Virus record (IMG/VR): IMGVR_UViG_3300021142_001757
Location: 1-50,325 of that record
Origin: a virus
Length of the DNA stretch: 50,325 bases
Reading direction: 5' to 3' (one strand)
Part shown: positions 2-25,574 of the stretch, in pieces
Numbering within the stretch: the first letter of the stretch is position 1
How the letters are laid out: each line of letters opens with the position of its first letter
Notes under the pieces: model-generated
Told to the model about the DNA's origin: nothing
Database searches by the model: none
Seen by the model: only the letters and a program-made list of their open reading frames with translations
Position numbers and translations under genes: made by a program

Positions 2-529
2 AAAACTTTCGATTATGCTACAGATTTAAGACAGTATGATTATTTGGTAGTAAGCTGTGGAGTTGATCCACATGGCAATACGCCACATCTTGAACAATCA
101 TGGGACGATATTGAAACTACACTACAAACTAATTTGCTTGGTCAAATTAAAGTTGCTCACAGTTACCTTAACCAACGTAAAGACAAGTGGAGCAAGATTA
201 TCTTTGTGGGCAGTGCTCATAATGGCGATCATATTATGCAAAATCGTCTTGCTTACGGTTTATCAAGATTTGCACAACGTGCTTATATAAATGCACTTCG
301 TCACGAATTACAAGATTCTAAACATGGAATTCTTTTGTTTAGACCAGGCAAGTCACGAACCAATCTACTTAAAAATAGATTACTTGATGAGTGGACGCAA
401 GAAAAAGATGATGAATATTATAGTGATTCTCATCTTACAATGTATGATATTCAAGAAAGATTGCCATTTGTTCTGTTTGATGATGAACATTATATACAAG
501 AAATTGTGATAGCTACCAAACCAATTTAA
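2..529 (+). CDS. SDR-family NAD(P)-dependent oxidoreductase, 5' partial
   Basis: The frame is open from the first complete codon at base 2, so the N-terminal Rossmann nucleotide-binding part lies outside the window. What remains resembles the C-terminal two thirds of a short-chain dehydrogenase/reductase: an NLLG stretch after a helix, a beta strand ending in VGS (usual catalytic Ser position), then YGLSR followed by an amphipathic helix, and a late FRPG segment. The classical catalytic motif is YxxxK; here the lysine position is Arg, so activity is uncertain. It ends 10 bases before the next gene and probably belongs to the same accessory operon. The substrate cannot be told from sequence. 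It could be a degenerate SDR with a binding role instead of an enzyme. Confidence 0.7.
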   Translation, partial: KTFDYATDLRQYDYLVVSCGVDPHGNTPHLEQSWDDIETTLQTNLLGQIKVAHSYLNQRKDKWSKIIFVGSAHNGDHIMQNRLAYGLSRFAQRAYINALRHELQDSKHGILLFRPGKSRTNLLKNRLLDEWTQEKDDEYYSDSHLTMYDIQERLPFVLFDDEHYIQEIVIATKPI

Positions 530-539
530 GGATTATAAG

Positions 540-1121
540 ATGCATGAATGGTGTTATAAATTTGTTGATTTGCCACAAGTTCCGCAAGAAATCATTGATA
601 AAAGTTTAAAAACAATTTCTGATAATAATCTTCATGAAGATTGGTGGTGGTGGCCTAAATCAGCAAGTGAAGTCGATATGGTAGATAACAACCCAAAACA
701 AAGTGTCGCATTTGTTCAATATAAATTGTCAGAAGATGTTAAAGATTGGTTTCGTGAAAACATTGTCTTAAGTGGATACAACGCAATTAATATATCAAAA
801 ACTACTGATGGAGAACATAAAGGCGCACATACAGACAAAACACGCGATTATGTTTTATTATATTTGCTTTCACTTGGCGGTGAAAAACCGCATACAGTTT
901 GGTATCAAGAAAAAAATCACTCAATTATAAGAGAAAAGAAAGCAAGAGTGCATGACTACAATCTATTGACAGAAATAGATCGTGTTCATGTTCCATTACA
1001 CAGATGGTGTGTTCTTAATAGTAGAATTATACATGGTGTAGATTCACTCACTAGCAACAGAATTGGTTATCATATTGGATTAGATGAATCGTTTGAACTT
1101 CGTGGAAAATTTATAGATTAA
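540..1121 (+). CDS. 2OG-Fe(II) oxygenase-like protein (copy 1)
   Basis: A 193-aa protein starting at ATG 540 after an AAGGA ribosome-binding site. It carries the pattern of a double-stranded beta-helix 2-oxoglutarate/Fe(II) dioxygenase: HTD (His97, Asp99), a distal His165 in IIHGV, and Arg174 about nine residues later for 2OG binding. The spacing (HxD, about 66 residues, H, 9 residues, R) suits the fold. Many phages encode short oxygenases of this general type, and their substrates are mostly unknown. It is clearly paralogous to the gene at 3607-4200: both share an N-terminal DLP-VPQ-II segment, the YQEKN segment and the LLTE-D-V--PL-W segment. The two copies flank an ABC importer. The family assignment rests on motifs only. 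Confidence 0.7.
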   Translation: MHEWCYKFVDLPQVPQEIIDKSLKTISDNNLHEDWWWWPKSASEVDMVDNNPKQSVAFVQYKLSEDVKDWFRENIVLSGYNAINISKTTDGEHKGAHTDKTRDYVLLYLLSLGGEKPHTVWYQEKNHSIIREKKARVHDYNLLTEIDRVHVPLHRWCVLNSRIIHGVDSLTSNRIGYHIGLDESFELRGKFID

Positions 1122-1309: not shown

Positions 1310-2284
1310 ATGTTTAACAAAACAATAGCTATTGCATTTGCTACTATTGCACTTATCACGGCGGCGCATGCAGATACCACAGTTCGTGTAAATCGCATGT
1401 TAAAATATGCTAGCACAGAACCACTACTATACAGAGTTACTGAATTACTTCCAGAATATGCCAAGAAAGAAGGCATCAACGATGTTAAAGTAGAATTTGT
1501 AGATATTCTTGAGTCTACAAAAGCTAATGAAGCTATGCTTCTTGGTCAAATTGATATTATTTGGGGTGGAATAAATGGTTTTGGTATCTTATATGATAAG
1601 AAACCAGAAGATACTAAAATTTTAGCTGGCGGTGAAGAATTTGATAATTGGTTAGTTTGTGGCAATCCAAAGATAAAGACTCTTCACGATATTGGTCCAA
1701 CAACAAAAATTGCTATGAAAGGACTAAACAGCGGAGAACAAATGTTGCTACGTGAATTTACTGCAGCAGAATTTGGTGATGAACAGTTTGATAAATTTGC
1801 AAGTAATATTGTAGTGATGCCTCGTGACCAAGCACTTGCTCAAATAATTTCTGATAAACCAGAAATAGAGTGTGGCGTTATTGGAACTCCATGGCAAAAT
1901 ATTGCTGTTCAAAAAGGTGCTCATATCGTAGCACAATCTATTCCTAACAAAACATACGGAACACTTAATTTGGTTTATAGCACCAAACATTGGTTAGATG
2001 CTAATCCTAAATTGGCTCGTGCATGGATTGCTGCACAACATCAGGCAGTTCAAGAATTTGAACACGATCCTATTCCTATGTTAAAAACTTATATCGAGCG
2101 TGACCAAGTAACTGAACCTACCATTGAAGAACTGATTAAGCAAAAGCGCGAAAATAAAGATGTATATGAAGTTAGTCCACAAAAAGATTTAGCTTTTATT
2201 GATTTCATGTACCGTGTTGGCATCTTAACTGGCGCTGGTAAAGGTCATAAAGATATGGTTTGGGACGAAAAATTAGTTAAATGA
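1310..2284 (+). CDS. ABC importer substrate-binding protein, NitT/TauT (SsuA/NMT1-like) family
   Basis: The start at ATG 1310 is chosen because AAGGAG precedes it and because it opens a clean signal peptide (K4, hydrophobic core, cleavage after AHA near residue 21); an upstream in-frame codon would spoil this. The mature protein looks like a type-2 periplasmic binding protein of the nitrate/sulfonate/taurine/thiamine-precursor class, with KVEFVDI, a LLGQIDI-WGG segment, a mid-domain LV-STKHWLDANP typical of the class, and a C-terminal helix region. It would deliver a small solute to the permease in the host inner membrane. Its stop overlaps the ATPase start (ATGA). The substrate is unknown; sulfonate, taurine, nitrate and pyrimidine-precursor binders are all in this fold. 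A complete transporter is rare on phage genomes. Confidence 0.8.
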   Translation: MFNKTIAIAFATIALITAAHADTTVRVNRMLKYASTEPLLYRVTELLPEYAKKEGINDVKVEFVDILESTKANEAMLLGQIDIIWGGINGFGILYDKKPEDTKILAGGEEFDNWLVCGNPKIKTLHDIGPTTKIAMKGLNSGEQMLLREFTAAEFGDEQFDKFASNIVVMPRDQALAQIISDKPEIECGVIGTPWQNIAVQKGAHIVAQSIPNKTYGTLNLVYSTKHWLDANPKLARAWIAAQHQAVQEFEHDPIPMLKTYIERDQVTEPTIEELIKQKRENKDVYEVSPQKDLAFIDFMYRVGILTGAGKGHKDMVWDEKLVK

Positions 2285-2886
2285 TTGAACTTCGTAACCA
2301 TACAGTTACAGTTTGTGATACTATTCCCTTGTTTGCACCGATAGATTTGTCGGTGCAAGCAGGAGAAATTGCTGTTATCATGGGAACAAGTGGAGTAGGC
2401 AAAACAAGTTTGCTTGCTTCTATTGCAACTAGATCAGATATCATATTCAAGAATCAATTTCGTGTTTTTCAAGAAAGTCATCAACTGTTTCCATGGATGA
2501 CCGTGCGAAAGAATTTAGAATTAGTTTGCCAAAAACCATATATTGATCTGGTAAAGCGATGGAATTTAGAACAATATCTAGATCATAGTCCAACAAATTT
2601 AAGTGGCGGACAACGCCAACGATTTACGCTTATTCGCAGTTTATGCAGTGGATTACGCACATTGTTATGCGACGAGCCTCTAAGCGCCTTAGACGGTCTT
2701 ACAGGGGCAACTGTTGCAAAAGATTTCCGTGAGATTGTTCACGAAGAAAACCTAACCGTAGTATGGGTTACGCACAATGTAACCGAAGCACGAATTGTAG
2801 GCGATAGCATTTATTTGCTTAGTAAAGATGGCTTAAAAGACGTAACCCGTGAGGATAATTTAATTGTTTCGATCCTTTCTTTATAA
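2281..2886 (+). CDS. ABC importer ATP-binding subunit, NitT/TauT family
   Basis: A 201-aa ATPase with every core motif intact: Walker A GTSGVGKT (35-42), Q-loop VFQE (Gln64) followed by LFPWMTV as in nitrate/taurine/sulfonate importers, signature LSGGQ (107-111), Walker B LLCDE (128-132), D-loop SALD, and switch His165 in VTHN. It is slightly shorter than the usual 230-260 aa because the regulatory C-terminal tail is minimal. ATG overlaps the previous stop by four bases, and the end overlaps the permease start by 23 bases, so the three subunits are translationally coupled. Intact motifs argue that it is functional and under selection. It would energise import at the cytoplasmic face of the host membrane during infection. 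Confidence 0.88.
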   Translation: MIELRNHTVTVCDTIPLFAPIDLSVQAGEIAVIMGTSGVGKTSLLASIATRSDIIFKNQFRVFQESHQLFPWMTVRKNLELVCQKPYIDLVKRWNLEQYLDHSPTNLSGGQRQRFTLIRSLCSGLRTLLCDEPLSALDGLTGATVAKDFREIVHEENLTVVWVTHNVTEARIVGDSIYLLSKDGLKDVTREDNLIVSILSL

Positions 2887-3610
2887 TATTTTAGCCCTTT
2901 CACTTATATTAGTAGGATGGCATATTTTATATCTCGCTGTTCAAGAACCACTTATATTTCCAGATAGTACCAGTATTATTGCTGCTCTATACAATATGGT
3001 GCAAACAGCAAAGTTTTGGAATAGCTTTGCGTTGACAATGAAAACACTTATTATAAGTTATATTATTGGCTTATCATTGACATTGGCTATCATATTGTTA
3101 TGTTTTAGATATCAATTAGTAAAAAATTTGTTTGAGAAATATTGTTCTTATTTCAATCCGCTGCCTAGCTTTGTGCTAGTTCCATTCATGAGTTTGTTTA
3201 TGGGTTTAGGGGCTAGCCTGGTTTATAGCATTATCATATGGAATATTGTATGGACTAGTGGATTGCAAATGCTGCGAGCCATAGAATCAGTGCATGAACA
3301 ATGGCATAAGCATGTTGTTAACCTTCGTTGGAAACCGTTAAAAGCATTGTATCATGTGTATATTCCAGCTTCTATAAGCAATATTATAGGCATTGCTAGC
3401 ATAAGTTGGGCAAACAGTTGGCGAATATTGATTAGTTTAGAAGTTGTATTTGGCAGCATCGGCGGTTACTTTGGATTAGGTTCATATATTATTGATGTTA
3501 AAAGTAAATTGGATATTGACCAAATGTATGCTATTCTTTTTGTAATTGCTTTAACAGGCGTTATAATCAATAGCGCACTTAATAATTTAAGCAAGAGGTA
3601 TAAAGTATGA
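2864..3610 (+). CDS. ABC importer permease subunit (BPD_transp_1 type)
   Basis: A 248-aa hydrophobic protein with about six membrane segments. An EAA-like cytoplasmic loop (NLRWKPLKALYHVYIPAS) followed by a membrane helix marks a binding-protein-dependent transport inner-membrane component. The start codon is TTG at 2864, supported by a GAGGA site about seven bases upstream inside the ATPase gene; no ATG gives a full first helix. The stop overlaps the next gene's ATG (3607). It completes a three-gene importer with the two genes upstream. The family is the one used by TauC/SsuC/ThiX-like permeases; the transported compound cannot be read from sequence. Confidence 0.82.
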   Translation: MFRSFLYNILALSLILVGWHILYLAVQEPLIFPDSTSIIAALYNMVQTAKFWNSFALTMKTLIISYIIGLSLTLAIILLCFRYQLVKNLFEKYCSYFNPLPSFVLVPFMSLFMGLGASLVYSIIIWNIVWTSGLQMLRAIESVHEQWHKHVVNLRWKPLKALYHVYIPASISNIIGIASISWANSWRILISLEVVFGSIGGYFGLGSYIIDVKSKLDIDQMYAILFVIALTGVIINSALNNLSKRYKV

Positions 3611-4200
3611 TATGGTTGTATAAAATTCTTGATTTACCGCATGTTCCACAAGATATTATAGAACAAGCATATAAACAAATTGATGTTGAGTTAGATCAAA
3701 CTCCATCAAATAAACCTAAAATTGATTGGGATAAGATTAAAAATGATGTTATTATTGTCAATGGTATAAAGAAAGTTAATGCTCCCAATATGGGTTATAA
3801 TTTAGATGATAGCATTAAATCATGGGCTTACACACATATTACAGATAAAGATGTAGCAAATGTTCGCATATCCGTTACCGATACTGGAAATGGCAAGGAT
3901 ACTAACGGTGCTCACTGCGATTTAAGTAGAAACTATTCAATGATATATCTATTAGAAAGTGGTGGCGAAAACCATAGAACTGTATTTTATCAAGAAAAAA
4001 ATAAACCGTTGTTGAGGAATAATGGTGATCGTTGCAGTGATTATAGCCTATTAACAGAAGTGGATTCCGTTCAAATACCGCTACGAACATGGACTATTAT
4101 CAAAACTCGTGTATTGCATGGTGTAATTAATATTCCAAATCCTAGAATTAGTTTTCAAGTTGGATTAAATTCTCTTGTTGGTTTAGGATTAAATGATTAA
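3607..4200 (+). CDS. 2OG-Fe(II) oxygenase-like protein (copy 2)
   Basis: A 197-aa paralogue of the gene at 540-1121, with the same order of motifs: HCD (His103, Asp105), distal His171 in LHGV, and Arg180. The N-terminal half has diverged more than the catalytic half, and a short insertion (NGIKK region) replaces the Trp-rich stretch of copy 1. It overlaps the permease stop by four bases and the next gene by eight, so it is in the same polycistron as the importer. The E. coli tauABCD and ssuEADCB systems also couple NitT/TauT-type importers with an oxygenase, but these proteins are much shorter than TauD, so any functional link is inference. Confidence 0.7.
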   Translation: MIWLYKILDLPHVPQDIIEQAYKQIDVELDQTPSNKPKIDWDKIKNDVIIVNGIKKVNAPNMGYNLDDSIKSWAYTHITDKDVANVRISVTDTGNGKDTNGAHCDLSRNYSMIYLLESGGENHRTVFYQEKNKPLLRNNGDRCSDYSLLTEVDSVQIPLRTWTIIKTRVLHGVINIPNPRISFQVGLNSLVGLGLND

Positions 4201-5320
4201 TTTTAATGTAAATTTTAACCAAGATACCTTTTATCTGGTAGATAATAAAAAAGTTTACAGTAAAATTAAAGCTATTGAATTAGCTAATGGTGACATGTCT
4301 CGCATCCATTTTAGTTGGATGGAAGATACTTGGAAATCTATTGATTGGTCAGAAGAACCATTAGAATCATGGCAGTCTTTGTTAAAGACACGGTGCCAAC
4401 AAATTCGTGACAAATATGATTATCTTGCTCTTTGGTATAGCAGTGGATATGATAGCCATACTATATTGCGAAGTTTTGTAGATAATAATATATTACTAGA
4501 TGAATTGTTAATATATGACCGCAGAGATTTTTTTCCTGATCCAGAAGTTCCAGTAGCAATTTCTCATGCAGAACATATAAAAAATACCTATTATCCAAAT
4601 TTAAAAATTAATGTGGTTAGAGTAAGTTATGAATCGTTAAGTAACTTTTACAAAAAATCTGGCACTGATTGGATTTATCATGCAGGTTGTTCATTAAAAG
4701 TTGGAAAAACAACCAGATATTTTAGCACAACTATCATGCCAGAATTTATTTCTACTACCGAACAACCCAATCGTGGCGATATCATGGGAGTAGATAAAGC
4801 AAAAGTTTTATTAAGGGACAATCAATGGCATGCATTTTGTCCCGATGGTTCTGCAGTTGATTTTATTGGCAGTAAACAAGAAAATTTCTTTTTTAGTAGT
4901 GATTTGCCACAACTTCATATCAAACAATGCCATATGGCAATAAATTGGTTTGAATCTCTTCCAAATCTATCACAGGATTTGGTTCATGATGTTCAAGGCC
5001 GAGACCGCAGCATAAATGGTCCACATACTCGTTATTATGAAGCATGGAATACGGGTATGGGTAGATTTCCATTGACTCGCAGTCATGATTTTAGTAGAAC
5101 AGGTAACCACAAATTTTTTCATAAAAGCAATAGCGAAACATCTCCTGATAATATTTCATATTATGAACATATAAAAAATAATGACAAACAGGTTTTTAAG
5201 ATATATACTAGTGGCTTAATACAGGCAAGAAGATTCGATTCAGGCTCCCTCGGCTCATTGGCAGATCAAACAGTAATCTCAAAACAATATTATATCAAAG
5301 ATAAATCACAGGCATATTAG
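4193..5320 (+). CDS. PP-loop ATPase, asparagine-synthase-like
   Basis: A 375-aa protein whose best motif is the pyrophosphatase-loop SSGYDS (residues 83-88) after a hydrophobic strand (YLALWY), as in the synthetase half of asparagine synthase, QueC and related N-type ATP pyrophosphatases, which activate a carboxylate or carbonyl by adenylation. There is no N-terminal glutaminase (Cys2) domain, so any ammonia or amine donor must come from elsewhere. The remaining sequence (conserved-looking Trp, His and Arg residues in the C-terminal half) is not recognised. It starts inside the end of the upstream oxygenase gene, and no promoter is seen between them. Possible jobs include nucleotide, peptide or small-molecule modification; I cannot choose. 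Confidence 0.6.
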   Translation: MINFNVNFNQDTFYLVDNKKVYSKIKAIELANGDMSRIHFSWMEDTWKSIDWSEEPLESWQSLLKTRCQQIRDKYDYLALWYSSGYDSHTILRSFVDNNILLDELLIYDRRDFFPDPEVPVAISHAEHIKNTYYPNLKINVVRVSYESLSNFYKKSGTDWIYHAGCSLKVGKTTRYFSTTIMPEFISTTEQPNRGDIMGVDKAKVLLRDNQWHAFCPDGSAVDFIGSKQENFFFSSDLPQLHIKQCHMAINWFESLPNLSQDLVHDVQGRDRSINGPHTRYYEAWNTGMGRFPLTRSHDFSRTGNHKFFHKSNSETSPDNISYYEHIKNNDKQVFKIYTSGLIQARRFDSGSLGSLADQTVISKQYYIKDKSQAY

Positions 5321-13989: not shown

Positions 13990-15189
13990 ATGTCACAAGA
14001 ACTATTAGAAGGCCGTTGGGACGAAACCAAGTCAGCCCTGTTGGAAGGTCTAAGCGGTAATCGTCGTACAACAATGAGCATGGTGCTCGAAAATACTCGT
14101 AAGTATTTGGCAGAAAACGCAACAGCAGGTGGTACTGCTGCTGGTAACGTAGCAACACTTAACCGTGTTATCCTACCTGTTATCCGTCGTGTTATGCCAA
14201 CAGTTATCGCCAACGAAATCGTTGGTGTTCAACCAATGACTGGTCCAGTCGCACAAATTCACACTCTACGTGTTCGTTATGCAGACCAGTTCACAAGCAA
14301 TGGTACAGGTCAATTCGGAACTGGTGCAAACATCAATGACGAAGCACTTTCACCATTTAAGATTGCTTCTGGTTATTCAGGTGCTCCTTCTGGCGTTAAC
14401 AGCCCAGACGGTCGTGCTGGTCTAACTGCTGCACTCGAAGGTACACCAGGTCGTCGTTTGAACGTCCAGATTCTAAAGCAACCAGTTGAAGCTAAGACCC
14501 GTAAGCTTAGCGCACGTTGGACTTTTGAAGCTGCTCAAGACGCTCAAGCAATGCATGGTCTTGACATTGAAGCAGAAATTATGGCTGCTCTTGCTCAAGA
14601 AATCACTGCTGAAATCGATCAAGAAATCCTTTACAGCCTACGTTCATTAGCTGCAAGTGAATTTACTTTCAACCAAGCTACTGTAAGTGGTACTGCAACA
14701 TTCGTTGGTGACGAACATGCTGCTCTAGCAGTTCTAATCAATCGTGCTGCTAACCTAATTGCACAACGTACTCGTCGTGGTGCAGGTAACTGGGCAGTTG
14801 TTTCAAGTGCTGCATTGACTGTTCTACAGTCTGCAACTACTTCAGCATTTGCTCGTACTACTGAAGGCGCTTTCGAAGCACCAACTAACACTAAGTTCGT
14901 TGGTACTCTAAACGGCGCAATGCGTATCTATGTTGACAGCTATGCAACTGACACTATTCCAGTTCTAGTTGGTTACAAAGGTACAAGTGAAGCAGACGCC
15001 GCAGCGTTCTATTGCCCATACATCCCTCTAATGTCATCTGGTGTGATCCTTGATCCATCAACATTCGAACCAGTTGTTGGCTTTATGACTCGTTATGGTT
15101 ACATCGAACTTACTAACGTAGCATCCAGCTTCGGTAACGCCGCTGACTACCTAAGTGAAATCGCTGTAAGCAACCTTTCATTCCAGTAA
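13990..15189 (+). CDS. 23: Major capsid protein (T4 gp23 family)
   Basis: A 399-aa protein with typical marine T4-like gp23 sequence: TRKYLAEN near the N-terminus, then NRVILPVIRRVMPTVIANE, VGVQPMTGPVAQIHTLRVRY, KLSARWTFEAAQDAQAMHG, and late FYCPYIPLMSSGVILDP-TFEP and GFMTRYG. HK97 fold expected. LAE at residues 40-42 is a good gp21 cleavage site, giving a propeptide of about 42 residues against 65 in T4. The codon choice (many CGT, AAC, GGT) fits high expression. GGAG precedes the ATG; a strong terminator follows. T4 gp23 is 521 aa, so the shorter form lacks part of the insertion domain. Confidence 0.96.
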   Translation: MSQELLEGRWDETKSALLEGLSGNRRTTMSMVLENTRKYLAENATAGGTAAGNVATLNRVILPVIRRVMPTVIANEIVGVQPMTGPVAQIHTLRVRYADQFTSNGTGQFGTGANINDEALSPFKIASGYSGAPSGVNSPDGRAGLTAALEGTPGRRLNVQILKQPVEAKTRKLSARWTFEAAQDAQAMHGLDIEAEIMAALAQEITAEIDQEILYSLRSLAASEFTFNQATVSGTATFVGDEHAALAVLINRAANLIAQRTRRGAGNWAVVSSAALTVLQSATTSAFARTTEGAFEAPTNTKFVGTLNGAMRIYVDSYATDTIPVLVGYKGTSEADAAAFYCPYIPLMSSGVILDPSTFEPVVGFMTRYGYIELTNVASSFGNAADYLSEIAVSNLSFQ

Positions 15190-15268: not shown

Positions 15269-15430
15269 TTAGCGAATTACTTGCATTGCTGCAACATGTG
15301 GAATATCACATCGTGAAATTCCAATATCAGCAAGATCACGATTAGTTAGATTGCTTAGTTCAATAACAGTACGACGATAACGGTTATATTTTGCTATCTT
15401 TGTTGCTATGCTTTTTACAAGGGTCTTCAT
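15269..15430 (-). CDS. DUF1127 (YjiS-like) small protein
   Basis: A 53-aa gene read on the minus strand from ATG 15430 to TAA 15269, with GGAG seven bases before the start. The protein is basic in the N-terminal half (KSIATKIAKYNRYRR) and then carries the DUF1127 signature ELSNLTNRDLADIGISRCDI, as in E. coli YjiS and many alphaproteobacterial proteins, ending with a short HVAAM helix. In alphaproteobacteria, Arg-rich DUF1127 proteins have been linked to RNA turnover and nutrient stress. The gene lies alone, opposite to the head and fibre operons, and shares the bidirectional-looking terminator after gp23. Its presence in a phage suggests capture from a proteobacterial host and a role in host RNA or stress control, which is inference. 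Confidence 0.85.
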   Translation of the reverse strand: MKTLVKSIATKIAKYNRYRRTVIELSNLTNRDLADIGISRCDIPHVAAMQVIR

Positions 15431-15555
15431 TATATTTCTCCATGAGGTATGTTCTTTTATATCACCTATTTATATGCACTGCAACATAAATCTAACTGCG
15501 TTATAAACTACCCTGATATGCATCATTGGCATGGGTAAACAATCATTCATTTTAT

Positions 15556-15563
15556 GGTAAATA
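15556..15563 (+). promoter_or_regulatory. Possible late promoter box GGTAAATA
   Basis: TAAATA core 21 bases before ATG 15584, in the 150-base gap between the DUF1127 start and the fibre gene; nothing else was recognised in that gap. Confidence 0.35.
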
Positions 15564-15583: not shown

Positions 15584-18500
15584 ATGGCACTGCGTCGTTA
15601 TTTTGGTAAAATCAGCCCATTATTAATTAACCAATTAGTTGGACATGAGGGTGAGTTCGTCATTGACGAAAGCACAAATAATCTGTATATCATGGATGGC
15701 AACACGGCTGGTGGTCATCAAGTAAACCTTGCCAATCTTAACATTGTTAAAGGAAATGTTTATAACAATGTTATTCCTATATCCACCGATTACTATAGTT
15801 TAGGTAATGTAAATTATGCTTGGAATAGTTTATATCTTAATGATTCTCTTTATTTTAACAATACTGGTTATATAAATCAAACTGAAAATACGCTTAGTAT
15901 TATTGCAAATAATAGCACACAATATAGTAGTTTAGTTTTACAAGATGATATTGATTCTTTATTATTTGGCAATAACAGTGTTTGGCTAGTATCTGGCAAT
16001 GGTCCAGAATACTTAAGTGTATATTGGCAATTTAATCCATATGGAGTGCTTGTATTTCCTGATGGAACAGAGCAACCTACTGCATTTAGCAATGCTAATG
16101 TTTCAACACTTAACAATCTTGCATCTAATACTGCGCTCATACCAGGTTTAGTTACTAACGCTGCTTATCAAGCAACACAATTGAATAATTTAAATGCAGA
16201 AGTTGTAAATCTTGCTAATGAAGTAAACAGTATTGTTGTCGGGACTGCGTTTGCAAATGCAGCACAAATTAATGCTGCAAATAGTAACATTAACACACTA
16301 ACTATCAATGCTTCTATTCAAGCAAGTTATATCAATACACTTAATAGTGAAATGTCAGCTACTCAATCACAGATTGCTGTGCTACAAAGTAACGCATCGA
16401 CACAAGAAACTGAAATTTCTCTTTTAAATGCTAACTTGCTTGCTGCAAATGGCGAAATATCAATTCTTCAAGCAAATGTCAACACATTAAATGAAGAAGT
16501 AATTGCTATTTTGGGTGGTGGCGGTGCAAGCACATTTCCTAATTTAACAGTTACCAATAACATTTATACTAGTAATCTATCTGCAAACAATAATGTTATA
16601 GTTAGTAATACTATTGTATTTTCAAATACATTAACTGCTTTAAATGCTAGAAATAACACATTATTTGTTAATAATTCTAATCTATCAGTAGATGGAAATA
16701 TTATTTCTGGAAATCATGAAACTTCAGGTTCTTACTATGTTAACAGTGTACCAGGAAATGGAACTGGTTATCTTTTTACTAACGGATTTTATGGGGTATC
16801 TGGTTTAACTTCTGTTAATCTTGGCAATAGTGTAAATGGTTTAAGTTTGGTTGCAAATGGTAATCCAATATTAACTGGCTACTCTAATGGTATTAGTTAT
16901 ATTGGTGGAACATTGACCACAATGTATAGCAATTTATTTGTTAGTGGTAGCACCGTCACTCTGCCAAATTATACTGAAATTGGTTTGTTGCCATCTTTCT
17001 CTCCATCAAATGCAAAATTAACCTATGTTGACAATGTAAACAATTATACACAATTCTTATTACAAAACAAAAACAGCGGAAGCAATGCTAGTGGTGACGT
17101 AGTTATCACCGCTGATGATGGCTCTGATAGCACTCATTATATTGATATGGGTATCAATAGCAGCACATTCAGCGGCGGCGGTGGACTTGATGGACCAAAT
17201 GATGGTTATTTACTGGTAGAAGGTGGCAAACTTGTCATTATGACAATTGACCAACCAAACGATATTGTGTTTGCTATTGGTGGCGATGCTACGAGCAATG
17301 AAATTGGTCGTTGGAAGGCAAGCAATGGTCTTGTTGTAACTGGAAATATTACTACAAGCGGCAATGTTACTATCGGTGGCAGTCTAAATGTAGTTGGGAA
17401 TATTACTACATCACATTATGAAACTATATCACTAACTGAATATGCTAACAATATTACCGCAAGTGGTAATATTACTACTGCTGGTAATGTTAGTGCGACC
17501 TATTATACAGGTAATGGTTATTATCTTACTGGGTTGCCTGCAACTTATGGAAATACTCAAGTTGCTGCCTATCTTAATAATGGTATTGCAACTGATATCA
17601 ATATAACTGGTAATATCTCACCAACCGCAAATGCTGTTTATAGTTTAGGAACTCTTACAAATCAATGGAAGAGTTTGTATGTAAGCAATAATACAATTTA
17701 CATTGCTGGAACTGCGGTGCAAGTTGCAAATGGATCACTCATAGTTGGTGGAAATGCAGTTAGCAGTGGTTCAACATATAGTAATTCTAATGTTTCTGCA
17801 TACTATGTTGCTAACACTGTTACCGCAAGTAATATTCAAATCTTAAACAATGGTAATATTAGATTGCCAACTGGTGCAACTATAAACGATAGTTATGGTG
17901 CTGGTTATCTTGTTCTTTCTCCTAACACTGCTGCAAATGCTCTTGCTGGTGTTATGATTGGTGGTAGCGGATATCTAATATCACCAAATGGATCAAGAAA
18001 TGCTGTTCTAAACTATAACTCTATTAGTGGACAATTTGGTATCTACCAAGTTGCTGTTTATGGCAATCAGCAAAACGCAATAGTTAATTCTGGTTCAAAC
18101 AATTTTGGTAATATTGGTGGAATTAGTTCATTCTTTGGTAATCTATTTGTAGCTAATATCTATTCACAAGGATATCTGTATCCAAATGGAACATCAATCC
18201 TTTCTGGTATTGGTGGAACATACAGCAACAGTAACGTTGCAGCATATCTTCCAACATACAACGGAAACATTGGTAATATTACAACTGGAAATCATACTCC
18301 ACTTGCTAATATTGCATATAATCTTGGTAATAGCACACTTTATTGGGCAAATGTCTATGCCAACAACTTTAATGCTGCCACCCAAATTGCTACGCCAAAG
18401 ATTCAGTTTACTGTTGGTGGCTCGCAAATTCTTGAAGATAACCCACTTGATTTAGCAATTATTGGACCATATCAAGTAAGCATTAAAGGCAATGGAACAC

Positions 18501-20278
18501 AACAATATACATTCGGCAATGACGGTAGTTTTGCTGGTCCTGGTGGATATATTGCTTGGGCAAACGGTGCAATTGGCGGCAATGTTATTGCAACTGGTAT
18601 CTATTGGTCAAACGGTGTAGCATTTAGTAGCGGTGGTGGTGGAAATTATGGCAATACACAAGTTGCTGCATACTTACCAACTTATGCTGGTAACGTTAAT
18701 GCTAATTTCTATTTTGGTAATGGTTATTATCTATCAGGTATTACAAGTGGTGGTTCTTCATATAGTAACACCAACGTTGCTGCTTATTTGGTAACTTATA
18801 ACGGTAATATTTCTGCTGGTAATCTTTCACTGACAAGTGGAGCAAGCGGCAATATAACTGGAACTGGTTATGTAGTTGCTGGTAATATGGTAGCAAATAC
18901 AGGCGTGTATGGCAATAGTTACTATTGGTTCAACAACAACGCACCATTGGCAACCACTATTACTGGAACATTTGCTAATGCTAACGTGGCAGGTTATCTA
19001 CCAACTTATACGGGCAACGTTGGTGCTGGTAATATTATTCTAACGAATCTTGGAAATATTATAGCAGCTACTAATTCTAATCTATCAATACGCACTTACG
19101 GTGTATATAACATCCTTACACTGACTAATATTGCTGGCGGATATAACAGTCCTCCTTATACTAACCAGTCCCTAACAGGTGGTAGCGGCACTGGAATGCT
19201 CGCATCGTATAGTTCAGTTGGCGGTTATATCTCAACTATTACGGTAACTAATGCTGGAACTGGTTATAAAAATGGTGATGTTCTAACGGTACCAGGTGGT
19301 CTTGGTTCTACTGTTACTTTAAGTAATTATAATCCCAACGTTCTTGCAAGTAAAGCATACTACTGGCAATTTAGCCAATATGATGGTAACGTAACTGTTC
19401 CAGGCAATATCATTATGCCAAGTAATAGTTATGTGTTGGGTGACTTTACTAATTCTAACGTTGCTTATAGAACATTCTTCCAAACTACAACAGCTAATGC
19501 TACTACTGGTATCTATGCTGTGCCGAGTGGCACTGGAACTGGTGCAAGTTGGCAAGCAGTTGCTAATAGTAACCCAAATAATGCAAGCAAAATTTTTATG
19601 GCTACTAACAGCAACGTTGATGTTCAGTTAGGTAGTGGTATCAATGGAAGCGGAACTTATCTGCCATTAAGTTTCTATAATAACAATGCTGCACAGATGG
19701 TAATCTATCCAAATGGCAACGTTTATATGAGCAATGCTAACCCAATTACAACAAGTGGCAATGTCAATGTTGGCAACCTTGTTTCAACGGGCAATGTTAC
19801 TGCAAGTTATTTGATAACAACTGGTTCTTATGGAAATATCAGCGGTGCTAATGTTATTACTGCTAATACATTTATTGGAACAAATGCTACAATCAGTGGT
19901 AATCTTTATAGTCCAAGTCAAACTGGTAAGAGTGCTGCACTTGTTGCACAAAATACATCAGTTACTATGGACAACATTAAAGTTCAATGGCTAAACAATG
20001 GTAGTAGTAACGCCAACCAACTACAACTTGGTAGTTTAAGTGGCACACCGAGTGCTCTTTACACTTATATGTTCCAAAGTGGTTTAGGCGGCGGCACAAC
20101 TGGATATAGTGGCAGTTTATCATTAAGCACAACTTATTCTAATATAGGTAGCACAAGTGGAACTGCTGGTGATATGTATATGGTCACTACAACCGTTGGA
20201 ACTAATGCTTATCGTATTAGTGCAATAACTGGTTCTGGTTATAGTAATAACTTAATTAGTATTGAGAGATTGATTTAA
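15584..20278 (+). CDS. Giant tail-fibre protein with coiled coil and NVAAYLPTY repeats
   Basis: A 1564-aa protein rich in Asn, Gly, Ser, Thr and Tyr. The N-terminus (ALRRYFGKISPLLINQLVGH..GEFVIDESTNNLYIMDG) looks like a virion-attachment domain found in phage fibres. Residues about 170-305 form a predicted trimeric coiled coil with regular L/N/A heptads, followed by GGG. Then come beta-rich repeats: a GINSS..NDGYLLVEGG module (about 486-590), and at least six variants of the motif (S/G)N(S/T)NVAAYLPTYxGN separated by TGN/AGN strands, suggesting a triple beta-helix shaft. The stop overlaps the next ATG (TAATG). It is probably a long or side tail fibre. It ends in GSGYSNNLISIERLI without a recognised chaperone domain. 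Confidence 0.75.
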   Translation: MALRRYFGKISPLLINQLVGHEGEFVIDESTNNLYIMDGNTAGGHQVNLANLNIVKGNVYNNVIPISTDYYSLGNVNYAWNSLYLNDSLYFNNTGYINQTENTLSIIANNSTQYSSLVLQDDIDSLLFGNNSVWLVSGNGPEYLSVYWQFNPYGVLVFPDGTEQPTAFSNANVSTLNNLASNTALIPGLVTNAAYQATQLNNLNAEVVNLANEVNSIVVGTAFANAAQINAANSNINTLTINASIQASYINTLNSEMSATQSQIAVLQSNASTQETEISLLNANLLAANGEISILQANVNTLNEEVIAILGGGGASTFPNLTVTNNIYTSNLSANNNVIVSNTIVFSNTLTALNARNNTLFVNNSNLSVDGNIISGNHETSGSYYVNSVPGNGTGYLFTNGFYGVSGLTSVNLGNSVNGLSLVANGNPILTGYSNGISYIGGTLTTMYSNLFVSGSTVTLPNYTEIGLLPSFSPSNAKLTYVDNVNNYTQFLLQNKNSGSNASGDVVITADDGSDSTHYIDMGINSSTFSGGGGLDGPNDGYLLVEGGKLVIMTIDQPNDIVFAIGGDATSNEIGRWKASNGLVVTGNITTSGNVTIGGSLNVVGNITTSHYETISLTEYANNITASGNITTAGNVSATYYTGNGYYLTGLPATYGNTQVAAYLNNGIATDINITGNISPTANAVYSLGTLTNQWKSLYVSNNTIYIAGTAVQVANGSLIVGGNAVSSGSTYSNSNVSAYYVANTVTASNIQILNNGNIRLPTGATINDSYGAGYLVLSPNTAANALAGVMIGGSGYLISPNGSRNAVLNYNSISGQFGIYQVAVYGNQQNAIVNSGSNNFGNIGGISSFFGNLFVANIYSQGYLYPNGTSILSGIGGTYSNSNVAAYLPTYNGNIGNITTGNHTPLANIAYNLGNSTLYWANVYANNFNAATQIATPKIQFTVGGSQILEDNPLDLAIIGPYQVSIKGNGTQQYTFGNDGSFAGPGGYIAWANGAIGGNVIATGIYWSNGVAFSSGGGGNYGNTQVAAYLPTYAGNVNANFYFGNGYYLSGITSGGSSYSNTNVAAYLVTYNGNISAGNLSLTSGASGNITGTGYVVAGNMVANTGVYGNSYYWFNNNAPLATTITGTFANANVAGYLPTYTGNVGAGNIILTNLGNIIAATNSNLSIRTYGVYNILTLTNIAGGYNSPPYTNQSLTGGSGTGMLASYSSVGGYISTITVTNAGTGYKNGDVLTVPGGLGSTVTLSNYNPNVLASKAYYWQFSQYDGNVTVPGNIIMPSNSYVLGDFTNSNVAYRTFFQTTTANATTGIYAVPSGTGTGASWQAVANSNPNNASKIFMATNSNVDVQLGSGINGSGTYLPLSFYNNNAAQMVIYPNGNVYMSNANPITTSGNVNVGNLVSTGNVTASYLITTGSYGNISGANVITANTFIGTNATISGNLYSPSQTGKSAALVAQNTSVTMDNIKVQWLNNGSSNANQLQLGSLSGTPSALYTYMFQSGLGGGTTGYSGSLSLSTTYSNIGSTSGTAGDMYMVTTTVGTNAYRISAITGSGYSNNLISIERLI

Positions 20279-24513: not shown

Positions 24514-24932
24514 TGGCTAAGTTACTTAAAAATGCAAGTTTGCAAACAGGTAGCACTGCAATTCAATTGCCTCTTGGAGCAACAGCAGATCGCCCTCTAA
24601 ATCCAGTCAATGGACAAATTCGTTACAATACTGATTTGCAACGTTTTGAAATTTATTATAATGCTTGGCAAAGCATTGCTATTCTTGGCAATGTTACCAT
24701 TTATAAAGATTCATTTACTGGTGATGGTGTTCAAACACAATTTACATTGAGTTATACTCCGCCAGATCAAAACAGTATTCTTGTGTTTGTTGGCAACGTT
24801 CAACAAAATCCAGGTGATGCATTTACGTTAAGTGGTGCGGTTATTACCTTTGCTAACCCTCCTCCTGCAACTTATAGTGTTGTTGTTTTCCATAAATTTT
24901 CATCTACGGATGCAAATCTACCAGGTACTTGA
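24513..24932 (+). CDS. Short fibre protein with TGDG-type domain
   Basis: A 139-aa protein with two recognisable fibre modules: GATADRPLNPVNGQIRYNTD followed by FEIYYNAWQSI (residues about 23-55), and SFTGDGVQTQFTLSYTPPDQ then SILVFVGNVQQNPG (about 70-105), a beta domain common in phage fibres and repeated at the ends of the proteins at 27684-29966 and 34623-38435. It ends abruptly after FHKFSSTDANLPGT; its last 15 bases overlap the 3' end of the antisense endonuclease gene. A longer ancestral protein may have been truncated when the endonuclease arrived. Confidence 0.6.
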   Translation: MAKLLKNASLQTGSTAIQLPLGATADRPLNPVNGQIRYNTDLQRFEIYYNAWQSIAILGNVTIYKDSFTGDGVQTQFTLSYTPPDQNSILVFVGNVQQNPGDAFTLSGAVITFANPPPATYSVVVFHKFSSTDANLPGT

Positions 24933-25574
24933 TAACCTACCCTTAACGCAATTTATTGGACAATCTTTTGTAAAATAAGATTTTTTTCCGTCATTCCACC
25001 AATGTTTACCTTTTTGTGCAATTGATCTTTTTAATTTGTGTTCATTGGATTGTTTAATTCCTCGTTTTGCTAATGCAGCATTTTTAATATGTTCGGATGT
25101 ATGTTTTTTTCCTGTATGCGCCTTTGATCTTTTTTCATTAGATTCTTTTGATTGTTTACATCCTCTGCGAGAATCTGCTGCTTTTTTAATATGTTCGGGA
25201 GATTGTTTTTTACCTTTTAATAAACTTGGCTTTCCAATCATTGATTTTCTTCTTTTTTCAATAGTTGTTTCAGATTGAATAGCCCCACTTGTTCCATCAC
25301 CGCCATCCGTTTTATTTCTTAATATACCAGTTTTCATATCTTTTCTGCCATACCAAAGAATCATTCGTCTTTCAATTGCTAATACACCTATTTCTGTTAA
25401 ATTGTGTTCTAAAATAATAATGTTATTTTTATTTTTTGGTAAAGATATCAAATGGTTTTTAGACCATGCTCTATTTTTGTAACCTTTTCCAATATAGTAG
25501 GGAGTCAAATCCGATGCTCTTATATAAGCATATACATAATATCCGCTTGGCGGATTAGTGCTGGTAAATACCAT
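24918..25574 (-). CDS. GIY-YIG homing endonuclease (Seg-like) with NUMOD3 repeats
   Basis: A 218-aa protein. The N-terminal catalytic module has YYVYAYI (12-18), PYYIGKG (25-31) and Arg35 in KNRAW, as in GIY-YIG nucleases, with a downstream Glu region (AIERRMI). From about residue 100 there are four tandem NUMOD3-like DNA-binding units of the form GK..S-EHI-KAA-SRRG-KQS. The family includes T4 SegA-G, free-standing nucleases that spread by cutting phages lacking them. It lies antisense within the fibre locus and has its own late promoter and leader hairpin. An N-terminal Pro/Ser stretch precedes the motif. Confidence 0.88.
   Translation of the reverse strand: MVFTSTNPPSGYYVYAYIRASDLTPYYIGKGYKNRAWSKNHLISLPKNKNNIIILEHNLTEIGVLAIERRMILWYGRKDMKTGILRNKTDGGDGTSGAIQSETTIEKRRKSMIGKPSLLKGKKQSPEHIKKAADSRRGCKQSKESNEKRSKAHTGKKHTSEHIKNAALAKRGIKQSNEHKLKRSIAQKGKHWWNDGKKSYFTKDCPINCVKGRLSSTW

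What the first reader, a model, noticed from the sequence alone, without database searches (positions are those of the whole stretch)
15269..15430. DUF1127 gene carried by the phage, antisense behind the capsid gene
A clean 53-aa DUF1127/YjiS-like ORF with a ribosome site. The family is typical of proteobacterial chromosomes and in alphaproteobacteria is tied to RNA metabolism and nutrient stress. A lone phage copy beside the most highly expressed gene suggests host-derived regulation or a moron.
Basis: partly seen in the sequence, partly recalled or inferred. Interest (0 to 1): 0.7.

Follow-up and report, generated by a model that had tools for sequence, protein, structure and literature searches.

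The report
Late-expressed phage DUF1127 gene
A T4-like giant-phage fragment carries a tiny gene of the bacterial DUF1127 regulator family in its own late-transcribed slot behind the capsid gene; it is real, conserved in sister phages and recurs in many phages of alphaproteobacteria, so it is an uncharacterised but not unique host-type accessory gene.

Summary
The ORF at 15269-15430 (-) is real and is a DUF1127 protein (Pfam 54.8 bits, cut-off 23.3). It is not a lone copy: eighteen more IMG/VR contigs carry a DUF1127 gene in the same antisense place between gp23 and a fibre-like gene. The close copies (66-100% identical) show purifying selection (pooled pN/pS 0.32) with an invariant NRYRRTV...ELSNLTNRDLADIG core. 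The gene has its own phage late promoter (TATAAATA, 15474-15467, minus strand) and shares a bidirectional terminator with gp23. ATAAATA occurs 13 times in the window; 12 lie just upstream of a same-strand gene (P about 2e-16). It is therefore probably a late gene in a moron-like cassette, not an antisense regulator of gp23. Among characterised jumbo relatives, both alphaproteobacterial phages have DUF1127 and all 11 gammaproteobacterial ones tested lack it, so the unknown host is probably an alphaproteobacterium. Elsewhere in phages, DUF1127 often sits directly behind an hsp20 gene, and in other cases beside MazG-RNR or RNA-repair genes. Molecular function (RNA binding as in CcaF1, or sensor-kinase binding as with PhoR) is untested. 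Verdict: a well-supported new member of a known family, of moderate interest.

The parts
15269..15430 (-). DUF1127 gene, 53 aa, pI 10.3
   Evidence: Pfam 54.8 bits; conserved in 18 other contigs; pN/pS 0.32; 29 of 53 residues invariant among 11 close copies
15438..15441 (-). GGAG ribosome-binding site, 7 nt before the ATG
   Evidence: read in the sequence; conserved CTCC on the + strand in the alignment of the clade
15467..15474 (-). T4-type late promoter TATAAATA of the DUF1127 gene
   Evidence: ATAAATA core conserved in nearly all clade contigs, GTAAATA in L004; same motif proposed as late promoter in the relative CBB (PMC5259590)
15213..15238 (.). bidirectional intrinsic terminator shared by gp23 (+) and DUF1127 (-)
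   Evidence: pattern scan; folds on both strands with z -4.3 and -5.2; position conserved in the clade
13990..15189 (+). gp23 major capsid gene, left flank of the slot
   Evidence: 58-68% identity to gp23 of the closest characterised jumbo phages
15584..20278 (+). fibre-like gene, right flank of the slot, with TAAATA at 15558 upstream
   Evidence: homologue starts at the same place in the clade contigs that reach it; motif

Best explanation
A single-gene accessory (moron-like) cassette in an exchangeable slot between gp23 and a fibre-like gene of a T4-like jumbo phage that probably infects an alphaproteobacterium. Supported by sequence: the gene is DUF1127, is under purifying selection, has its own late promoter and ribosome site, and ends at a bidirectional terminator, so gp23 and DUF1127 are separate convergent late units. 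Inferred: the small basic three-helix protein imitates a host DUF1127 adaptor late in infection. The mechanism I hold most likely, by a small margin, is RNA binding through its Arg cluster (invariant R17, R19, R20, with R31 and R40), as reported for CcaF1, to alter turnover or processing of transcripts. That last step is untested.
For: Family. Clade-wide conservation and synteny. Selection. Late promoter: and PMC5259590. Terminator. Variable slot: HNH/NUMOD3 gene inserted beside DUF1127 in L004, homing endonucleases or other genes there in relatives. Alphaproteobacterial host. RNA: CcaF1 binds RNA and changes mRNA stability (PMC10253847); neighbours in other phages include RNA-repair genes and RegA; protein is basic, pI 10.3.
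Against: No experiment. Salmonella YjiS showed no RNA association (PMC11707872) and DUF1127 proteins of several species act through PhoR (PMC12501420). Neighbours in other phages are as often hsp20 or MazG-RNR as RNA genes. The window copy has no informative neighbour of its own. Origin from a host gene is not resolved by the tree.
Confidence: 0.5

Rival explanations
1. Same cassette, but the protein works by protein contact: it binds a host sensor kinase such as PhoR and resets phosphate or stress signalling late in infection.
For: Agrobacterium and E. coli DUF1127 proteins bind PhoR, and DUF1127 proteins from Sinorhizobium, Rhodobacter and E. coli complement an Agrobacterium mutant (PMC12501420), so a generic DUF1127 fold may suffice; YjiS partners are mainly inner-membrane proteins (PMC11707872).
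Against: In bacteria these proteins restrain phosphate uptake, which has no obvious benefit to a phage in its late phase; no phosphate gene was seen next to it. Untested here.
Confidence: 0.25
2. It serves a stress or proteostasis role tied to small heat-shock proteins; the stand-alone copy here is a split-off from an hsp20-DUF1127 pair.
For: 37 of 62 non-clade viral DUF1127 loci hold hsp20, mostly directly upstream, in at least two unlike phage groups, against 0 of 67 bacterial loci (not dereplicated). Phosso and Atu_ph07 have an hsp20 elsewhere in the genome.
Against: No hsp20 in the window or in six clade contigs of 27-56 kb, all fragments; none in phiM12, OC or RHph_I1_18 although these have DUF1127.
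Confidence: 0.12
3. It is a late, basic internal protein packaged in the head and injected with the DNA, like T4 internal proteins.
For: Late promoter, small basic protein, next to head genes.
Against: No conserved gp21-type cleavage site or capsid-targeting sequence by eye; in other phages DUF1127 sits in non-structural clusters.
Confidence: 0.05
4. Convergent transcription from the DUF1127 promoter regulates gp23 as an antisense RNA.
For: The genes are tail to tail with 79 nt between the stop codons.
Against: A strong bidirectional terminator, kept in the clade, lies between them; the coding sequence itself is under purifying selection.
Confidence: 0.03

Closest known systems
Bacterial DUF1127 proteins (PF06568): CcaF1 of Rhodobacter, small DUF1127 proteins of Agrobacterium, YjiS of enterics
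   Same: Small, basic, Arg-containing, with the (L)xD(I)G motif region; Pfam score far above the cut-off; helical in the predicted model
   Different: Phage-borne, under a phage late promoter, in a capsid-gene slot; function not tested
DUF1127 genes of alphaproteobacterial phages (phiM12, Phosso, Atu_ph07, RHph_I1_18, OC, cobaviruses such as P12053L and SIO1)
   Same: Same family in phages with alphaproteobacterial hosts; phiM12 and OC also have a TAAATA-type element upstream
   Different: Only 39-63% identical over the matched part; elsewhere in the genome, with tRNA, RNA-repair, MazG-RNR or unknown neighbours; none seen directly behind gp23
Morons of tailed phages
   Same: Single gene with own promoter and terminator, opposite orientation, in a variable slot between conserved genes
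   Different: Phage late promoter rather than a host sigma-70 promoter; GC close to the rest (35% against 38%)

Membership tests
DUF1127 (PF06568) | Profile score above the curated cut-off | tested here: met
   54.8 bits against 23.3, profile positions 2-36 of 37
DUF1127 (PF06568) | Arginine-rich, basic small protein | tested here: met
   6 Arg and 4 Lys in 53 residues, pI 10.3; family mean is about 14% Arg (PMC12501420), here 11%
DUF1127 (PF06568) | Conserved DIG(I/L) motif | tested here: met
   ADIGI in the window copy, D35-I36-G37 invariant among the 11 close copies
DUF1127 (PF06568) | RNA binding (CcaF1) or PhoR binding (Agrobacterium, E. coli) | not testable with these tools
   needs bench work; the literature disagrees
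Moron | Autonomous unit with its own promoter and terminator | tested here: met
   TATAAATA on the coding strand and a bidirectional terminator, by sequence only
Moron | Present or absent between genes that are conserved in relatives | tested here: met
   absent in the gp23 relatives at 84% identity or less; other genes fill the place behind gp23 there
Moron | Composition unlike the phage genome | tested here: not met
   GC 35.2% against 37.8% for the window
Moron | Expressed from a host-type promoter in the lysogen | tested here: not met
   no sigma-70-like site found on that strand of the intergenic region; late-type promoter instead
T4-type late gene | TATAAATA/ATAAATA promoter upstream on the coding strand | tested here: met
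   12 of 13 ATAAATA in the window lie within 100 nt upstream of a same-strand gene, DUF1127 included
T4 internal (packaged) protein | Capsid-targeting sequence with a gp21-type cleavage site | tested here: inconclusive
   none seen by eye in the alignment; no dedicated test run

The most novel reading that the evidence does not exclude
Phages of alphaproteobacteria use DUF1127 as a recurrent infection factor, often as an hsp20-DUF1127 gene pair, and this jumbo clade has put it under late control as a stand-alone gene: a general phage-encoded adaptor that reprograms host RNA turnover or stress signalling.
Probability: 0.25. Interest if true: 0.7.

Novelty: new member of a known kind. Interest (0 to 1): 0.42.

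Why it matters
DUF1127 is a widespread bacterial small-protein family whose function is disputed (RNA binder or sensor-kinase partner). Phages that keep it under selection and time its expression offer an independent way to find out what it does, and its presence hints at an alphaproteobacterial host for uncultured jumbo phages. No paper in the held library combines DUF1127 with Hsp20, and of the four that hold both DUF1127 and 'phage' none is, by title and abstract, about a phage-borne DUF1127 gene.

Tried and rejected
Donor phylogeny: 119 sequences but only 45 usable columns and an unsettled bootstrap; most of the clade groups with L097 and L002 at 85/89 while L003 and L004 fall elsewhere without firm support, so no donor is named. 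Structure search: the AlphaFold model is confident (pLDDT 91) but has no PDB match at E <= 0.001; the best is lambda CII at E 4.5. NCBIfam: no hit. RNA structure in the 5' leader: nothing (z +0.97). Antisense regulation of gp23 rejected because of the bidirectional terminator. Packaged internal protein considered; no targeting signal seen by eye. The original CcaF1 paper (PMC8034643) is not held. A query from a Pseudomonas DUF1127 found no phage recorded with a gammaproteobacterial host.

Full report
Observation. The ORF is at 15269-15430 on the minus strand, 53 aa, ATG start, with GGAG 7 nt upstream. It matches DUF1127 (PF06568) at 54.8 bits, E 7.7e-15, far above the curated cut-off of 23.3. 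PHROG 26566 (function unknown) also matches. The window is a 50,325-bp IMG/VR fragment of a T4-like phage related to jumbo phages: its gp23 is 58-68% identical to those of PA5oct, Phosso, GAP32, CBB, 121Q, Atu_ph07 and RaK2.

It is not a lone copy. A search with the protein in viral contigs found 15 contigs (L082-L096) with 66-100% identical copies, every one antisense behind gp23 and, where the contig reaches that far, followed by a homologous fibre-like gene. The gp23 search added L002, L003 and L004, with more divergent DUF1127 genes in the same slot. No DUF1127 was found in the records of the 76 gp23 relatives with gp23 identity of about 84% or less, many of which are fragments; L005 (97% gp23) ends at gp23 and is uninformative. 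Among the 11 distinct close sequences pooled pN/pS is 0.32, pairwise dN/dS 0.08-0.43, against pooled 0.17 for gp23 and 0.11 for gp21 in the same contigs. 29 of 53 residues are invariant, including NRYRRTV, ELSNLTNRDLADIG and RCDI. Selection keeps the protein.

Transcription. On the minus strand, 44 nt before the ATG, stands TATAAATA (15474-15467), the T4 late promoter sequence. The window holds 13 ATAAATA motifs on both strands; 12 lie within 100 nt upstream of a same-strand gene, in a territory covering 4% of strand positions (binomial P about 2e-16; the gene list was drawn up by me). The ATAAATA core recurs upstream of DUF1127 across the clade; L004 has GTAAATA and L003 has a CTAAATA next to an ATAAATA further up. 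In the related phage CBB an ATAAATA consensus before structural genes was proposed as the late promoter (PMC5259590). No sigma-70-like site was found on that strand of the intergenic region. Between gp23 and DUF1127 there is a strong hairpin with T-runs on both strands (z -4.3 and -5.2), kept in the clade even where its stem sequence differs. The genes are thus predicted to be separate, convergent late units, and antisense regulation of gp23 is unlikely.

The slot. The place behind gp23 is variable across relatives. L004 has an HNH/NUMOD3 homing endonuclease between the terminator and DUF1127. Pattern matching suggests HNH (8, L004 included), GIY-YIG (13) or SGNH-type (5) genes near gp23 in other relatives; this is a rough regex count. 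PA5oct has a Hef-like homing endonuclease directly behind gp23, RaK2 an annotated endonuclease, and GAP32, CBB and BF a T5orf172 gene two or three genes further on. A moron-like cassette in an endonuclease-visited slot is plausible; the order of events is not shown.

Host. Every matching named phage with a recorded host in 50,697 phage records infects an alphaproteobacterium: Sinorhizobium, Agrobacterium, Rhizobium, Ochrobactrum and roseobacters. A query from a Pseudomonas DUF1127 added none with a gammaproteobacterial host. A profile search of whole records of jumbo relatives found DUF1127 in both alpha-host phages (Phosso; Atu_ph07 with two places) and in none of 11 gamma-host ones. The nearest cellular relatives are almost all Alphaproteobacteria. 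This supports an alphaproteobacterial host by association only; alphaproteobacteria carry most DUF1127 genes anyway.

Function. AlphaFold predicts a long N-terminal helix and two shorter ones (pLDDT 91), with no PDB match. The protein is basic (pI 10.3). The literature is divided: CcaF1 binds RNA and affects RNA stability (PMC10253847); Agrobacterium and E. coli proteins bind PhoR, and DUF1127 proteins from several species complement an Agrobacterium mutant (PMC12501420); Salmonella YjiS showed no RNA association (PMC11707872); a Sinorhizobium DUF1127 gene is controlled by attenuation (PMC12218461). Neighbours in other phages vary: CCA-adding enzyme, tRNA-His guanylyltransferase, RNA ligase and polynucleotide kinase in RHph_I1_18, MazG and ribonucleotide reductase in cobaviruses, RegA close by in some T4-like contigs, and most often hsp20 just upstream: 37 of 62 non-clade viral loci contain it, against none of 67 bacterial loci (not dereplicated). 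I favour an RNA-directed adaptor by a small margin, with sensor-kinase binding and an hsp20-linked stress role as real rivals. None of this is shown for the window gene.

Verdict. The interpretation needs three corrections: it is a conserved clade gene, it is a predicted late gene with its own promoter, and it belongs to a wider set of DUF1127 genes in phages of alphaproteobacteria. It is a new member of a known kind, of moderate interest because the family's function is disputed and phage copies under selection are a fresh way to test it.

Noticed in passing
window 1310-3610 (+): A complete ABC importer in a phage: NMT1/THI5-like binding protein, ATPase and permease, with TATAAATA at 1133 upstream. 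Candidate auxiliary metabolic genes.
   Followed up: no
L098, L099, L103, L105, L111, L126, L127, L130, L136-L150, L155, L158, L160: hsp20 lies directly upstream of, or overlapping, a DUF1127 ORF in many viral contigs of at least two unlike phage groups (37 of 62 loci hold hsp20), but in none of 67 bacterial loci.
   Followed up: partly
L168:995-4900: In Rhizobium phage RHph_I1_18 the DUF1127 gene sits between a CCA-adding enzyme and a tRNA-His guanylyltransferase, followed by RNA ligase and polynucleotide kinase.
   Followed up: no
window 24918-25574 (-): Reverse-strand gene with a weak NUMOD3 match, just under the Pfam cut-off, probably a homing endonuclease, also with a TATAAATA on its own strand (25641).
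   Followed up: no
L003:1987-2178 and L091:441-599: The two DUF1127 proteins share their first residues (MNTILEKIAK.IEQ) and near-identical upstream DNA but differ in the core, as if alleles had been exchanged by recombination.
   Followed up: no
window 15584-50161: A long run of same-strand genes, many with repetitive G/N/T/S-rich fibre-like sequence, most of this half of the window.
   Followed up: no
window 44-1121 and 3607-5320 (+): A short-chain dehydrogenase fragment (44-529) and three proteins without Pfam match; 540-1121 and 3607-4200 look alike in sequence by eye.
   Followed up: no
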